Shown piece after piece: positions 10,197-61,849 of a DNA stretch of 64,000 bases; positions within the stretch are counted from its first letter, which is position 1, and each line of letters starts with the position of its first letter. The position numbers were made by a program, and so were the translations under genes. This DNA is from Metabacillus litoralis (lineage in GTDB: Bacteria; Bacillota; Bacilli; Bacillales; Bacillaceae): the NCBI RefSeq assembly GCF_007994985.1, contig NZ_VOQF01000005.1:124001-188000 (forward strand). The letters are read 5' to 3'. Below the pieces are notes generated by a model. It had not been told where the DNA came from. It saw only the letters and a program-made list of their open reading frames with translations, and made no database searches.

Positions 10197-11301
10197 ATGG
10201 AATTAGTAGAAATTCGTCAAGAGCTTGAAAAAACAGCTAAACGTTTAGCGGACTTTAGGGGGTCTCTTTGACCTCGATATTAAAGAAGCACGTATCTCTC
10301 AACTTGAAGGGCAAATGACTGCACCTGATTTCTGGGATAATCAAAACGCTGCACAAGTTGTGATTAATGAAACAAATGCACTAAAAGAAATGGTCGATCA
10401 ATTTCATAATTTATTCGAATCATATGAAAATCTTCAATTAACACATGATCTTGTCAAAGAAGAAGCAGATGAGGATTTACAGTCAGAGCTTGAGTCAGAG
10501 CTTAAAGACTTAGTTTCTCAGCTAAATGACTTCGAGCTTCAGCTTTTATTAAGCGAGCAACATGATAAAAACAATGCAATTTTAGAGCTTCACCCAGGTG
10601 CTGGTGGAACAGAATCACAAGACTGGGGCTCCATGCTTCTTCGTATGTACACACGTTGGGCTGAGAAAAAAGGCTTTAAAGTGGAGACTCTTGATTACCT
10701 ACCAGGAGATGAAGCGGGAATTAAAAGTGTCACTCTTCTCATTAAAGGTCATAATGCTTATGGCTATTTAAAAGCAGAAAAAGGTGTACATCGTTTAGTT
10801 CGTATTTCACCGTTTGACTCATCAGGTCGTCGTCATACATCATTCGTATCATGTGAAATCATGCCAGAATTCAATGAAGAAATCGACATTGAAATACGTA
10901 CTGAAGATTTAAAAGTTGATACCTACCGTGCAAGTGGAGCTGGTGGGCAGCATATCAATACAACTGACTCTGCAGTACGTATCACGCACGTACCAACAAA
11001 CATTGTTGTAACATGTCAAACAGAGCGTTCACAGATCAAAAACCGTGAGCGTGCGATGAAAATGCTTCAAGCAAAGCTTTATCAAAAACGAATCGAAGAA
11101 CAAGAAGCAGAGCTTGCTGAAATTCGTGGCGAGCAAAAAGACATCGGCTGGGGAAGCCAAATTCGTTCATACGTGTTCCACCCATATTCAATGGTGAAGG
11201 ATCACCGTACGAATACGGAAATTGGGAATGTGCACGCTGTGATGGATGGAGAATTAGATCCGTTTATTGACGCGTTTCTTCGTTCTAAGTTATCTCAATA
11301 A
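10197..11301 (+). CDS. prfB: Peptide chain release factor 2, programmed +1 frameshift
   Basis: Translated from 10197-10268 joined to 10270-11301, giving 367 residues. Zero-frame codons 1-24 (start [12 protein letters not shown]) end at in-frame TGA 10269-10271; a +1 shift on CTT continues as [12 protein letters not shown]2 reads UGA and UAA. The stop-recognition motif SPF ([16 protein letters not shown]) and the catalytic GGQ ([15 protein letters not shown]) are both present. Ribosome site GAGGTG (10185-10190) precedes ATG by 6 bases. The frameshift makes synthesis depend on RF2 level: ample RF2 terminates at UGA. A terminator follows the gene. Confidence 0.97.
10257..10272 (+). promoter_or_regulatory. 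prfB: prfB programmed frameshift site
   Basis: AGGGGG (10257-10262), an internal Shine-Dalgarno, three bases, then CTT TGA C (10266-10272). This is the classic RF2 autoregulatory arrangement: slow UGA decoding plus SD-driven tension shifts the ribosome +1 from CUU onto UUU. Confidence 0.96.
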
Positions 11302-11310
11302 TAGATGGGA

Positions 11311-11342
11311 GCAACTCGACTTTATGGTTGAGTTGCTTTTTT
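11311..11342 (+). terminator. rho-independent terminator of prfB
   Basis: GCAACTCGAC (11311-11320) pairs with GTTGAGTTGC (11327-11336) with one G-T pair, then TTTTTT. Confidence 0.9.
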
Positions 11343-11417: not shown

Positions 11418-11540
11418 GGTGCGGATTTTGTCGGAAATAGTCTAATCGAAGATAAATCCGGAAAATCGAAGATAAATTCCCAGAATCGATGATAAATCAG
11501 AAAAATCGCCGATAAATTCAAAAAATCGACGATAATCTCG
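11418..11540 (+). repeat. 20-bp tandem array 1 with leader
   Basis: Leader GCGGATTTTGTCGGAAATAG (11421-11440) runs into TCT and then five units starting at 11444, 11464, 11484, 11504 and 11524, exactly 20 bases apart. Each unit holds the core AATCGNNGATAAAT (last unit degenerate) plus a variable 6-base spacer. The array lies in the 536-base prfB-yvjA gap. Its length of 20 is not a multiple of 3 and no frame is kept, so it is not coding. The remaining 11541-11763 shows nothing else I can identify. Confidence 0.9.
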
Positions 11541-11763
11541 ATCACCTGGGACCAAATCGAGCACCAAAGTACGAACCCCCCCTATTATAGTCCAAAATAG
11601 AGGCAAGTCAGCCTCCAAAATACCAGGAAATCACAAGTTTCTCCCTCCACCCACAGAATTTTTCCTCTTAAATAGCAAATACTACACAAAAAGAAGAATA
11701 GTCTTCCAATATTTCCACCTACACCGCAACTCTTTACTCCGTTAACACGTTATTTAACTGTTA

Positions 11764-15126: not shown

Positions 15127-16464
15127 ATGAAAAGAAAGCTAATGACATACAGTTTGGCTGCCGTTGTTGGGACAAGCGGGTTATTGCTTCCAGCTAGTAA
15201 TACAACCTTCGCTCAAACGTTACAGGAAAAAAAGCAACAAATTGAACAAAAACAATCAGACGTATCTTCTAGTCTTGAAAATAAGGAAAGTGAAATTTCT
15301 CAGCTAGAGCAAGAAGAACAAAAATTAAACAGTGAAATAAAAAAAATAGATCTTCAATATGCTGAAATCAACGGTAAAATTAGAGAAAAAGAAGCTAGTA
15401 TTGAAGAAACTAAAAAAGAAGTTGAAGAACTAAAAATACAAATAGATGAAGTAAAAGCTCGCATAGCTGAGCGAAATAAATTGTTAGAAGACCGTGCTCG
15501 TTCACTTCAAGAAAATGGTGGAGTAGTTAGCTATTTAGATGTACTTCTAGGTGCTCAAAGCTTTGGCGACTTCGTAGGTCGTGTTAATGCAGTAACAACA
15601 ATCGTTGAAGCTGATAAAGAAATTATTAAAGCTCATGAAGCAGATAAACTTTTACTAGAGCAAACAGAGGCAGATCTAAATAATAAGCTAAAAGAATTAA
15701 AAGCGGCACTAACAGAATTAGAGGTTTTAAAAGCTCAATTAGAAGTCCAAAAGAATAAAAAAGAAGAATTAATGGCTACAGTAGAAAAGCAGCATGATGA
15801 AGCTTTACATGAAAAACATGTATTAGAAGATGAAGCAGCATTTTTAGCTGAACAAAAGAAAGCCATCGCACTTGAAGAGCAAAGACAACGTGAAGAAGCA
15901 GCAAGAGCAGCGGAAGAAGCAAAGCGTCAAGCTGAAGAAAGAAAAAGAGCTGAAGCAGCAGCGGCTTCAAGTAAGAGTTCAAATTCTAGCTCTGGATCTA
16001 GCTCTAGCTCAAATAGCAGTAGTTCTAGTTCAGGCAGTAGCTCAGCGTCTACACAAAAGCCAGCTGTAACTAGTGGATCATTCATGTGGCCTGCATCAGG
16101 TAGATTTACGTCAGGATATGGACAACGTTGGGGCAAACTACATGCTGGAATAGATATTGCAAACCGTTCAGATGTACCAATCGTTGCATCTGCAAGTGGT
16201 ACGGTTATTCGTGCCCATTATTCAAGCAGTTATGGTAATGTTGCTTATATTTCTCACAACATCGGCGGACAGGTTTACACAACATTATATGCACATATGG
16301 AAAATTTACAAGTAAGTGCAGGACAATCTGTTTCAAAAGGTCAGCAGATCGGTATCATGGGTAACACAGGTCGATCTACAGGTCAGCATCTACACTTTGA
16401 AATTCACAAAGGACCATGGAACGGACAAGCAAACGCTGTGAATCCTTTAAACTATTTACCATAA
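15127..16464 (+). CDS. Secreted coiled-coil M23 peptidoglycan hydrolase (EnvC-like layout)
   Basis: 445 residues from ATG 15127 (ATG 15124 is possible but only 4 bases from GGAGG). Signal peptide 1-30; long charged coiled coil about 30-280; Ser-rich linker about 280-315; M23/LytM domain 320-445. Metal and catalytic residues are visible: HAGIDIA, YAHM and HLHFEIH. The layout is that of EnvC, with a coiled coil that docks FtsX and an endopeptidase domain. B. subtilis FtsEX instead activates the NlpC/P60 enzyme CwlO encoded elsewhere. Here the gene directly follows ftsEX, so FtsEX control is strongly suggested. It ends at a terminator and is followed by array 2. Confidence 0.9.
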   Translation: MKRKLMTYSLAAVVGTSGLLLPASNTTFAQTLQEKKQQIEQKQSDVSSSLENKESEISQLEQEEQKLNSEIKKIDLQYAEINGKIREKEASIEETKKEVEELKIQIDEVKARIAERNKLLEDRARSLQENGGVVSYLDVLLGAQSFGDFVGRVNAVTTIVEADKEIIKAHEADKLLLEQTEADLNNKLKELKAALTELEVLKAQLEVQKNKKEELMATVEKQHDEALHEKHVLEDEAAFLAEQKKAIALEEQRQREEAARAAEEAKRQAEERKRAEAAAASSKSSNSSSGSSSSSNSSSSSSGSSSASTQKPAVTSGSFMWPASGRFTSGYGQRWGKLHAGIDIANRSDVPIVASASGTVIRAHYSSSYGNVAYISHNIGGQVYTTLYAHMENLQVSAGQSVSKGQQIGIMGNTGRSTGQHLHFEIHKGPWNGQANAVNPLNYLP

Positions 16465-16485
16465 TAATTAAATACCCGTATTTTC

Positions 16486-16517
16486 ACCTCTAAAACGTAT
16501 TGTTTTAGAGGTTTTTT
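16486..16517 (+). terminator. rho-independent terminator of the M23 hydrolase gene
   Basis: ACCTCTAAAAC (16486-16496) pairs perfectly with GTTTTAGAGGT (16502-16512), then TTTTT. Confidence 0.92.
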
Positions 16518-16613
16518 GTTATGTTTTTCTGAAATTTTGTCTCATCTGGGTCAGAGGGTTATGTTCTAGAACATTTTGTACTATCTCACTAAGGTGGGAT
16601 TGGCAATCTTAGA

Positions 16614-16738
16614 ATTTATCAGCGATTTTTTGAAAATATCAGCGATTATTGAGATTTATCGTCGATTTTCAGGATTTATCAGCGATTATTGAAAATTATC
16701 ATCGATTAGACTAATCTCGACAAAATCCGCACCACCAC
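16614..16738 (-). repeat. 20-bp tandem array 2 with leader (reverse orientation)
   Basis: On the minus strand the leader (GCGGATTTTGTCGAGATTAG within 16711-16730) is followed by five units of AATCGNNGATAAAT; on the plus strand the ATC of each core ends at 16620, 16640, 16660, 16680 and 16700, exactly 20 apart. The leader shares GTGGTGGTGCGGATTTTGTC with array 1, 5 kb away in the opposite orientation. It occupies the gap between the M23 hydrolase terminator and ctpB. Confidence 0.9.
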
Positions 16739-25669: not shown

Positions 25670-25671
25670 AA

Positions 25672-25832
25672 GGCTTTTTTCTGAAAGATTGTTGCCAATT
25701 GCCCTAATTTTGCAGTTGAAACATTGTTTTATTACATAATAGGTACTAATCAATGAAGAAAAGATGCCACTATGCTTGATACAGAGCTGTTTACTAGGAG
25801 TTGCTAAAGCAACAAAGTTTATGAAAACAGCC
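25672..25832 (+). mobile_element. MITE-like element M1 (161 bp) with 8-bp target duplication
   Basis: Ends GGCTTTTTTC and GAAAACAGCC are inverted repeats that continue inward as TTGTTGC (25690-25696) and GCAACAA (25809-25815). TTATAAAA flanks both sides (25664-25671 and 25833-25840). There is no coding capacity. Same family as 26930-27090, 47642-47804 and 61681-61842, with internal matches such as GAAAAGATGCCACTA. The size, terminal repeats and 8-bp duplication fit a non-autonomous transposon mobilised by an unlinked transposase. Confidence 0.8.
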
Positions 25833-38556: not shown

Positions 38557-38589
38557 ATGTTTTGATGGACATGAGCATAGTGGATGTTT

Positions 38590-38697
38590 GTCGCTTTTTG
38601 TCTAATCGAAGATAAATTCTAATAATCGAAGATAAAATCAGAAAATCGAAGATAAATTTCAAGAATCGAAGATAAATTCTCAAAATCGAAGATAAAC
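38590..38697 (+). repeat. 20-bp tandem array 3 with short leader
   Basis: Leader TTGTCGCTTTTTGTCTAATC (38588-38607) then five units AATCGAAGATAAA at 38604, 38624, 38644, 38664 and 38684, exactly 20 apart. All five have AA at the two variable core positions, making this the most uniform array. It lies between mtlA terminator and mtlR; 38698-38960 holds nothing else recognisable. Confidence 0.92.
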
Positions 38698-45960: not shown

Positions 45961-46085
45961 GCAGGTTTTGTCGAAAATAGTCTAATCGATGATATTTTCG
46001 CAGAATCGACGATAAATCCGAAAAATAGATGACAAATCCGGAAAATCGACGACAAATCAGAAAAATCCGAATCGAAGATAAAATG
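45961..46085 (+). repeat. 20-bp tandem array 4 with leader
   Basis: Leader GCAGGTTTTGTCGAAAATAG (45961-45980) then units at 45984, 46004, 46024, 46044 and a remnant at 46064 (AATCCG), followed by AATCGAAGATAAA at 46070. The remnant lacks 14 bases, so a unit was partly deleted compared with array 5. It is the first half of a longer duplicated block. Confidence 0.88.
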
Positions 46086-46287: not shown

Positions 46288-46425
46288 CAGGTTTTGTCGA
46301 AAATAGTCTAATCGAAGATATTTTCGCAGAATCGACGATAAATCCGAAAAATCGATGACAAGTCCGGAAAATCGGCGATAAATCAGAAAAATCGGCGATA
46401 AATCAGAAAAATCGAAGATAAAATG
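46288..46425 (+). repeat. 20-bp tandem array 5 with leader
   Basis: Leader GGCAGGTTTTGTCGAAAATA (46287-46306) then six units at 46310, 46330, 46350, 46370, 46390 and 46410, exactly 20 apart. Two neighbouring units are identical, consistent with unit duplication. Confidence 0.9.
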
Positions 46426-46742
46426 ATTGCAGCCTGCTCGAGGTGTGGAAAAGAAACACGTTTTAGCCATAAAGAGTGTTAAGTAAATAAGAGCTAACTT
46501 ACTTTTACTAAAAATATTAAAGATTTAGTTAGCCTTAAGTGAATTTTTTAATAAAGAACCCCTTTAATTAGTCCAATTTTAATAAATAGCTATATTCATA
46601 GAAATAATGGATGGATTTCGTTGAACAGCCTACTTTTTCTTAAAAAATTTCAGTTAGTCCAAAGAGCCCTTTTAAATGAAAAGCCCTTTGATTAGTCAAA
46701 AAGCATTTACCAATAAATATTACATTGATTTTGCAGCACAAC

Positions 46743-61680: not shown

Positions 61681-61842
61681 GGCTATATTCGTAAACTTTG
61701 TTGCTTGTAGTAAATTGAAGGATCTATCACTGTATAAAATCTAGTGGCATCTTTTCTTCTCTAAATAGTACCTTTTATAAGATAAAACATTGTTTTAAAC
61801 TTGGTATTAGGTCAATTAGCAGCAATCTTTCAGAAAAGAGCC
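61681..61842 (-). mobile_element. MITE-like element M4 (162 bp) after prfC
   Basis: Ends GGCT (61681-61684) and AGCC (61839-61842). Reverse-complement alignment with M1 is good (CTGAAAGATTG, GAAAAGATGCCACTA, GCAACAAAGTTTA). Flanking octamers TGATCTTA and TATGTTAA do not match. It begins 9 bases after the prfC stop, before the native terminator. Confidence 0.75.
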
Positions 61843-61849
61843 TATGTTA

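What the first reader, a model, noticed from the sequence alone, without database searches (positions are those of the whole stretch)
11418..11540. Family of exact 20-bp tandem arrays with a shared leader: possible undescribed element
Seen directly: five intergenic loci (11.4, 16.6, 38.6, 46.0, 46.3 kb) carry five or six units at exact 20-base steps. Each unit has the core AATCGNNGATAAAT and a variable 6-base spacer. Each array is preceded by a leader ending in GTCTAATCG, with TTTTGTCG close before it; four leaders are nearly identical over about 28 bases. The period equals about two helical turns, so repeated sites would lie on nearly the same face. The core includes an ATC-NNN-GAT inverted repeat. 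Inference: arrays of binding sites for a DNA-binding protein, or a mobile array type. I know of no named family that fits.
Basis: partly seen in the sequence, partly recalled or inferred. Interest (0 to 1): 0.78.

Follow-up and report, generated by a model that had tools for sequence, protein, structure and literature searches.

The report
Gene-end DNA repeat arrays in Metabacillus
Dozens of short, evenly spaced DNA repeat arrays sit near gene ends in these Bacillus-like bacteria; many stay in place between species while the repeated word itself changes, which looks like a set of docking sites for an unknown DNA-binding protein.

Summary
In detail: five arrays of 5-6 units at 20-bp steps in the window (one step is 26 bp). 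The genome, by kinship a Metabacillus, has at least 31 such arrays. Most lie 25-156 bp after the stop codon of a co-directed gene, often after a terminator; they are depleted between divergent genes. Many occupy the same sites in relatives. Against a close relative the core and leader are kept, spacers drift, and the first N of AATCGNNGATAAAT changed in 24 of 49 units (all to C), against 17% at four-fold sites. Other species of the genus use other words at a 21-bp step (AATCGCGGATAG; AGTTGCAARAT), at two gene ends in the place where relatives have GATAAAT words. The leader often holds TGTCGAA, the Spo0A box core, usually 10 bp before TGTCTAA when both occur. Curved DNA tends to follow the arrays in the window's own clade. 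RNA structure found no support; phage origin and transposition found little. Best reading: an apparently unnamed DNA-level array for cooperative binding of a sequence-specific protein whose specificity changes between species, placed at operon ends as a transcription or topology boundary. The protein and the function are inferred.

The parts
11310..11342 (+). intrinsic terminator upstream of array 1 (after the prfB-like gene 10315-11301)
   Evidence: read by eye (one search gives totals only); gene family
11426..11443 (+). leader of array 1 (TTTTGTCG N6 GTCT)
11444..11537 (+). array 1, five units at 20-bp steps
11568..11679 (.). curved DNA after array 1 (predicted bend 134 degrees, z 4.6; best of 13 windows)
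16708..16725 (-). leader of array 2
16614..16707 (-). array 2, five units; antisense to both neighbouring genes
16442..16553 (.). curved DNA after array 2 (predicted bend 137 degrees, z 4.7; best of 13 windows)
38586..38603 (+). leader of array 3
38604..38697 (+). array 3, five units
   Evidence: no significant curvature found downstream (best z 1.2)
45966..45983 (+). leader of array 4
45984..46083 (+). array 4, five units, last step 26 bp
   Evidence: best downstream curvature z 1.5, not significant
46292..46309 (+). leader of array 5
46310..46423 (+). array 5, six units; local duplicate of array 4 and its flank
46494..46605 (.). curved DNA after array 5 (predicted bend 107 degrees, z 2.8; best of 13 windows)

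Best explanation
These are DNA-level protein-binding arrays placed at the ends of transcription units. Shown: intergenic sites mostly just after gene ends, a leader with a TTTTGTCG box (in the own dialect often a second box, TGTCTAA, 10 bp on), about five tandem words at a fixed 20-bp step (21 bp in two other species-specific 'dialects'), many sites shared between species, change of the word between species, and a tendency to strongly curved DNA after the array in the own clade. Inferred: a sequence-specific protein binds the words cooperatively on one face of the helix; its specificity drifts between species and the words follow; the leader box, which matches the Spo0A box core, nucleates or times the assembly; the complex acts as a boundary at operon ends, stopping read-through or antisense transcription or holding and relieving transcription-driven supercoils.
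For: Genome-wide: 63 exact double units in G000, 0 in the reversed-pattern control; 31 arrays of >=3 units in the 20 fetched regions plus the window, 21 of 31 with five units. Position: upstream neighbour co-directed in 25 of 31, stop codon 25-156 bp before the leader in 21 of these 25; sense terminator in the 150 bp upstream in 45 of 80 arrays of three genomes (orthologues counted), antisense 9 of 80, random windows 26 of 300, 3' sides of other ORFs 87 of 251; divergent intervals 1 of 28 against 24 of 105 (p 0.026); within co-directed intervals 15 with and 5 against the genes (p 0.04). Evolution: 20 orthologous pairs G000-G002: core 0.92, leader boxes 0.91 and 0.95, flanks 0.81 and 0.76, spacers 0.71, NN 0.56 identical; first N differs in 24 of 49 spacer-colinear units, all to C, four-fold sites differ in 2745 of 16074. 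Dialects: AGTTGCAARAT at 21 bp in G013, G015, G019; AATCGCGGATAG at 21 bp in G020 (217 pair hits, control 0). Same site, different word: after eno and after a CAP-domain gene. Leader TGTCGAA in 56 of 141 arrays, TGTCTAA 10 bp on in 37 of the 42 with both boxes. Curvature. Sense-RNA folding z only -0.44.
Against: No protein is identified and no expression or binding data exist here. 6 of 31 arrays are antisense to both neighbours; convergent intervals are not enriched over co-directed ones (p 0.40). Core and site conservation are partly ascertainment, because arrays were found by the core; the eno survey is free of that bias but is one locus. The curvature is strong only in the own clade, weak in other arrays of the genus and absent after TTGCAA arrays. 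39 of 141 arrays lack TGTCG and only 4 of 15 TTGCAA arrays show a TGTC leader (read). Three genomes, G004, G009 and G018, have no such array after eno and none by the words tried, so the element looks dispensable. Upstream genes share no evident function.
Confidence: 0.45

Rival explanations
1. A selfish or REP-like dispersed repeat: arrays spread by an unseen copying mechanism into post-terminator DNA and are inherited passively; unit words differ because different families invaded different species.
For: Many copies per genome; local duplications of array plus flank at five G000 loci; an IS3-like element sits inside an array, as IS do in REPs (PMC1525189, abstract); a weak match on a Peribacillus asahii plasmid (75% over 69% of the query, E 0.007) may be a relative.
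Against: Many sites are shared between species; words change in place with spacers kept; different words occupy the same site, in the CAP-gene case behind the same TTTGTCG leader; no transposase among the 30 neighbouring genes scanned apart from the inserted IS; no viral or phage record.
Confidence: 0.22
2. A Spo0A-controlled regulatory or promoter element: tandem 0A boxes overlap a -35-like TTGTCG, 17 bp before the first GATAAA, which serves as a -10; the array tunes a starvation-induced transcript.
For: TGTCGAA is the 7-bp 0A core (PMC3485338, passages); AA after TGTCG in 56 of 102 leaders against 52 of 306 in background; second box at 10 bp in 37 of 42.
Against: In some M. bambusae arrays (L074, L103, L122) the first unit lies 10 bp closer to TTGTCG, so the 17-bp spacing is lost; it does not explain four further units; 11 of 31 arrays point at a convergent gene; 39 of 141 arrays lack TGTCG.
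Confidence: 0.17
3. An RNA element acting in 3' read-through transcripts (small hairpins AUC-GNN-GAU).
For: Orientation follows the upstream gene in most cases; short ATC/GAT inverted repeat in each unit; adjacent spacers pair slightly more than shuffled (p 0.02-0.03).
Against: Array RNA no more stable than shuffles: mean z -0.44 sense, 0.14 antisense, 31 arrays; no Rfam family in the window; strict 20/21-bp step; neighbouring spacers form only 2.57-2.80 of 6 pairs.
Confidence: 0.06
4. Chromosomal iteron- or centromere-like arrays left by, or working like, plasmid replication/partition sites (direct repeats plus curved DNA).
For: About five direct repeats of two helical turns next to curved DNA is the recalled layout of iteron origins and of the 20-bp parC repeats bound by ParR; weak match on a Peribacillus asahii plasmid.
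Against: No rep or par gene among the genes scanned beside arrays; at least 31 copies, many at housekeeping operon ends.
Confidence: 0.08

Closest known systems
REP / BIME elements of enterobacteria and pseudomonads
   Same: intergenic, many copies, targets of IS insertion (PMC1525189, abstract), proposed roles in supercoiling and transcription termination (PMC3733652, start of abstract in a listing); position at gene ends is recalled
   Different: not palindromic alternating repeats; fixed-step direct repeats with a leader; no RAYT seen among the neighbours scanned; word differs by species at shared sites
Spo0A binding sites (0A boxes)
   Same: leader core TGTCGAA, flanking A/T, second box-like word one helical turn away
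   Different: located after gene ends, not evidently in promoters; followed by units that are not 0A boxes; binding untested
Iteron origins and ParR-parC type centromeres (recalled, not tested by sequence)
   Same: about five direct repeats of ~20 bp, neighbouring curved DNA
   Different: dispersed chromosomal copies, no replication or partition genes among those scanned
CRISPR arrays
   Same: leader followed by regular repeats and variable spacers
   Different: 14-bp repeats, 6-bp spacers, step 20, no cas gene seen among the neighbouring genes scanned; spacers shared between orthologous arrays rather than acquired

Membership tests
REP/BIME | palindromic unit in alternating orientation | tested here: not met
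   units are direct repeats; array RNA fold z -0.44
REP/BIME | associated REP-type tyrosine transposase (RAYT) | tested here: inconclusive
   none among 30 neighbouring genes scanned; whole genome not scanned
REP/BIME | intergenic, 3' side of genes | tested here: met
   25 of 31 with co-directed upstream gene
Spo0A 0A-box element | TGTCGAA core | tested here: met
   exact in 56 of 141 arrays, TGTCG in 102 of 141, no TGTCG in 39; core per PMC3485338 passages
Spo0A 0A-box element | binding by Spo0A~P | not testable with these tools
   needs EMSA or ChIP-seq
MITE / IS-derived element | terminal inverted repeats and target duplication at an empty site | tested here: inconclusive
   no terminal inverted repeat noticed by eye; eno end without any array in 4 of 21 genomes, too diverged to judge a duplication
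Structured RNA / Rfam | match to a covariance model | tested here: not met
   0 hits in the window at gathering score
CRISPR | identical repeats with acquired spacers and cas genes | tested here: not met
   6-bp spacers shared between orthologous arrays; no cas family among the genes scanned
Plasmid iteron origin / parC | adjacent rep or par gene | tested here: not met
   none among the 30 neighbouring genes scanned

The most novel reading that the evidence does not exclude
A previously undescribed, genome-wide addressing system of Bacillales: a conserved start signal (a Spo0A-type box) followed by about five copies of a species-specific binding word at two helical turns. Sites at operon ends stay fixed over evolution while the word is rewritten genome-wide, in step with an evolving DNA-binding protein, so that related species run the same layout in different dialects.
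Probability: 0.3. Interest if true: 0.88.

Novelty: new variant of a known kind. Interest (0 to 1): 0.7.

Why it matters
If right, dozens of sites per genome are bound by an unknown, fast-evolving chromosomal protein, and the system gives a natural experiment in how a binding word is rewritten across a whole genome while its sites stay put. It would also tie operon ends, DNA curvature and possibly Spo0A together, a link I know of no report for. The exact words and places make it directly testable by pull-down and by deleting single arrays.

Tried and rejected
RNA structure: no excess stability on either strand; adjacent spacers pair slightly more than shuffled (p 0.02-0.03 for each of three neighbour comparisons), too weak for stems; alternate spacers are more alike (identity 3.0-3.3 of 6 against 2.2-2.4), a 40-bp super-period that I could not explain.

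Replication strand: array strand follows the fork in 35 of 47 arrays listed for four genomes (my tally by hand, with the terminus taken as opposite dnaA; G003 9/11, G006 12/15, G011 7/10, G016 7/11, whose list was cut; G012, in three contigs, left out). The pattern is loose: its reversed control rang 0, 2, 11, 2 and 1 times in G003, G006, G011, G012 and G016. The share is about what I recall for Bacillus genes in general, so I claim no extra effect.

Curved arrays: the arrays themselves are not curved in G000 or G007 (mean z -0.06 and -0.02; G002 0.66; TTGCAA arrays 1.1); the strong signal lies downstream. It is not due to the separate ~120-bp repeat. The wedge-model parameters were recalled, not fetched.

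A sigma-A promoter at the leader plus first unit: 17-bp spacing is lost in some M. bambusae arrays. Single gene function of neighbours: none evident. The NERD gene between two arrays after eno as the binding protein: no evidence. One search used a 20-bp step for G020 and found one place only; with 21 bp found the arrays. The chain counts are broken by my regular expression; only its per-locus context was used (12 of 15 arrays with a co-directed upstream gene, terminator in 7 of 15).

Literature: (open-access library only) listed no description of this repeat; the four papers hold what look like chance matches (listing only). That is not proof that none exists.

Full report
What is in the window. 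Five intergenic arrays of AATCGNNGATAAAT plus a six-base spacer occur at the stated places. Units step by exactly 20 bases except the last of the 46.0-kb array (26). Eleven tandem pairs at the 20-bp step stand against none in 20 shuffles. Each array is preceded by TTTTGTCG-N6-GTCT (GTTTGTCG at 38.6 kb) directly before the first AATCG. The 46.0 and 46.3 kb arrays are parts of a local duplication. Rfam has no match and there is no tRNA gene in the window.

Genome and relatives. The window lies in contig 45 of a 4.88-Mb genome, G000. The double unit occurs 63 times in it exactly, never in the reversed control. In the genus set, 11 of 21 genomes hold exact double units; in the family, 20 of 80 do with up to two mismatches; in a sample of the order, 9 of 397 for a looser word with one mismatch; the own genome is counted in each. 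Of 64 stretches in named genomes most are Metabacillus (litoralis, crassostreae, bambusae, halosaccharovorans, niabensis); the others are Peribacillus muralis and Bacillus salacetis (one each), Bacillus sp. J37, Bacillus sp. SG-1 and a Bacillus MAG (two each) and one Treponema MAG that looks unrelated. I equate G002 with M. crassostreae DSM 24486 and G007 with M. litoralis SaN21-6 from contig lengths, hence the genus. Viral contigs and phage records gave nothing; plasmids gave three weak matches, the best on a Peribacillus asahii plasmid (75% over 69% of the query, E 0.007), which may be a relative.

Anatomy. Over 64 arrays of G000, G002 and G007 the leader is TTTTGTCG (its G, C and G in 61, 59 and 59 of 64), then mostly G-T-C-T; the unit is AATCGNHGATAAATYYNNAD (236 units). 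Upstream DNA is T-rich around -59 to -46, which fits terminator tails. In one search, of 31 G000 arrays 14 lie between co-directed genes in their own direction, 11 between convergent genes, 6 antisense to both neighbours and none between divergent genes; counting intervals instead (other ORF cut-off) gives 15, 7, 5 and 1, with divergent intervals depleted (p 0.026) and convergent ones not enriched (p 0.40). A sense terminator lies in the 150 bp before 45 of 80 arrays. Neighbouring upstream genes include prfB-, eno-, pheT-, hisIE-, clpP-, cls- and bofC-like genes (my names from Pfam domains), with no common function.

Curved DNA. A wedge model (parameters recalled) gives no curvature in the G000 arrays but a peak 40-170 bp after them: windows starting 40 bp after the array bend 86.5 degrees on average against 42.8 in 374 control intergenic windows; 65% of 31 against 10% exceed z 1.64. 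AAA triplets there recur at lags peaking at 11, 21 and 33 bases. The signal holds without the seven loci that carry another repeat downstream (24 arrays, z 2.1), holds in G002 (15 arrays, z 1.4) and G007 (22 arrays, z 1.6-1.7), is weak in 35 other arrays of the genus (z 0.9) and absent after 15 TTGCAA arrays. In the window it is strong after arrays 1, 2 and 5 and not significant after arrays 3 and 4.

Evolution in place. Both flanks pair 21 of 33 G000 arrays with a G002 array and six with a G007 array, among the 18 and 9 regions fetched from those genomes (one spurious in-gene match left out). In 20 pairs with G002 the core is 92% identical, flanks 76-81%, spacers 71%, NN 56%. Because arrays were found by the core, core and site conservation are partly ascertainment; the contrast between NN, spacers and flanks is not. 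In 49 units with at least four of six spacer bases alike (16 of the 20 pairs given) the first N changed in 24, every time to C in G002, while four-fold sites of 112 neighbouring orthologues differ in 17%. The AA, AT and TT units that stayed (eight) are, as I read, those of the two arrays around the NERD gene after eno. Within G000 arrays the first N is homogeneous (concordance 0.603 against 0.458 shuffled, maximum 0.545 of 2000).

Dialects. The DNA after eno, fetched through the enolase protein and so free of pattern bias, was read in 21 genomes: 14 hold the GATAAAT family or its drifted forms (one unit only in G003, AAATAAG-like in G014, G005, G012, G017, GGATAG in G020), G013 holds AGTTGCAAGAT at 21 bp behind GTCGAAATTTGTC, G008 a repeat of 52-bp step, G015 one degenerate unit, and G004, G009, G018 and G019 none. 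AGTTGCAARAT arrays at 21 bp are spread over the genomes of G013 (34 pair hits), G015 (19) and G019 (8), with none in six other genomes tried. AATCGCGGATAG at 21 bp gives 217 pair hits in G020 and none in five others. A CAP-domain gene is followed by GATAAAT units in G017, by TTGCAA units behind TTTGTCGAA in G015, and its homologue in another genus (G072) by a GATAWAT array. On a tree of the eno region, whose root and several forks are unsure, the GATAAAT word is spread over several clades, and GGATAG nests beside genomes whose units often read CGGATAAA, which suggests gradual drift.

Leader. TGTCGAA, the 0A box core (PMC3485338, passages read), is exact in 56 of 141 unique arrays; TGTCG in 102; TGTCTAA in 49, at exactly 10 bp in 37 of the 42 arrays with both, at 20 in four. 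This set includes orthologues and other genera. In background DNA AA follows TGTCG in 52 of 306 cases. Tandem 0A boxes one turn apart as a Spo0A dimer site is recalled knowledge.

Mechanism. The fixed step of two helical turns, phasing of the boxes, conservation without RNA stability, and concerted directional change point to a DNA-binding protein. The place at operon ends and scarcity between divergent genes suggest a boundary or topological role. These last two steps are inference. I could not find the protein: whole proteomes were not available.

Known families. It resembles REP/BIME elements in place and in being hit by an IS (an IS3-like element lies inside one unit of an array in G000; compare PMC1525189, abstract), but the defining palindrome is absent. 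It does not meet the tests for CRISPR or an Rfam RNA, and neither phage nor plasmid origin found real support.

Noticed in passing
window 61787-61843 (-), 25670-25724 (+); also L143, L176, L141, L146: A separate dispersed intergenic repeat of about 120 bp, roughly GGCTCTTTTCTGAAAGATTGTTGCTAATTG...AGAAGAAAAGATGCC, with similar inverted ends; diverged forms lie downstream of seven G000 arrays.
   Followed up: partly
L137 9311-10867: An IS3-like element (rve and HTH_Tnp_1) inserted inside a unit of an array; the same IS end abuts arrays in L083, L113 and L096 and a similar one in L125, so arrays may be preferred targets.
   Followed up: partly
L141 8404-9726; L165; L082; L104: A NERD-domain gene (Pfam tested in L141 only) after eno is flanked by an array on each side; similar pairs of arrays about 1.1-1.2 kb apart follow eno in L165, L082 and L104. 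In G002 these two arrays escaped the change to C.
   Followed up: partly
G008 C38 24940-25583 and C3 23-508: A different tandem repeat of 52-bp step occupies the place after the eno terminator in G008 and one further contig.
   Followed up: partly
G000 C45: C45 (586 kb) holds 13 of the 31 listed arrays while C1 (857 kb) holds one: regional clustering, unexplained.
   Followed up: no
arrays genome-wide: Spacers alternate with a 40-bp period: alternate spacers are more alike than neighbours.
   Followed up: partly
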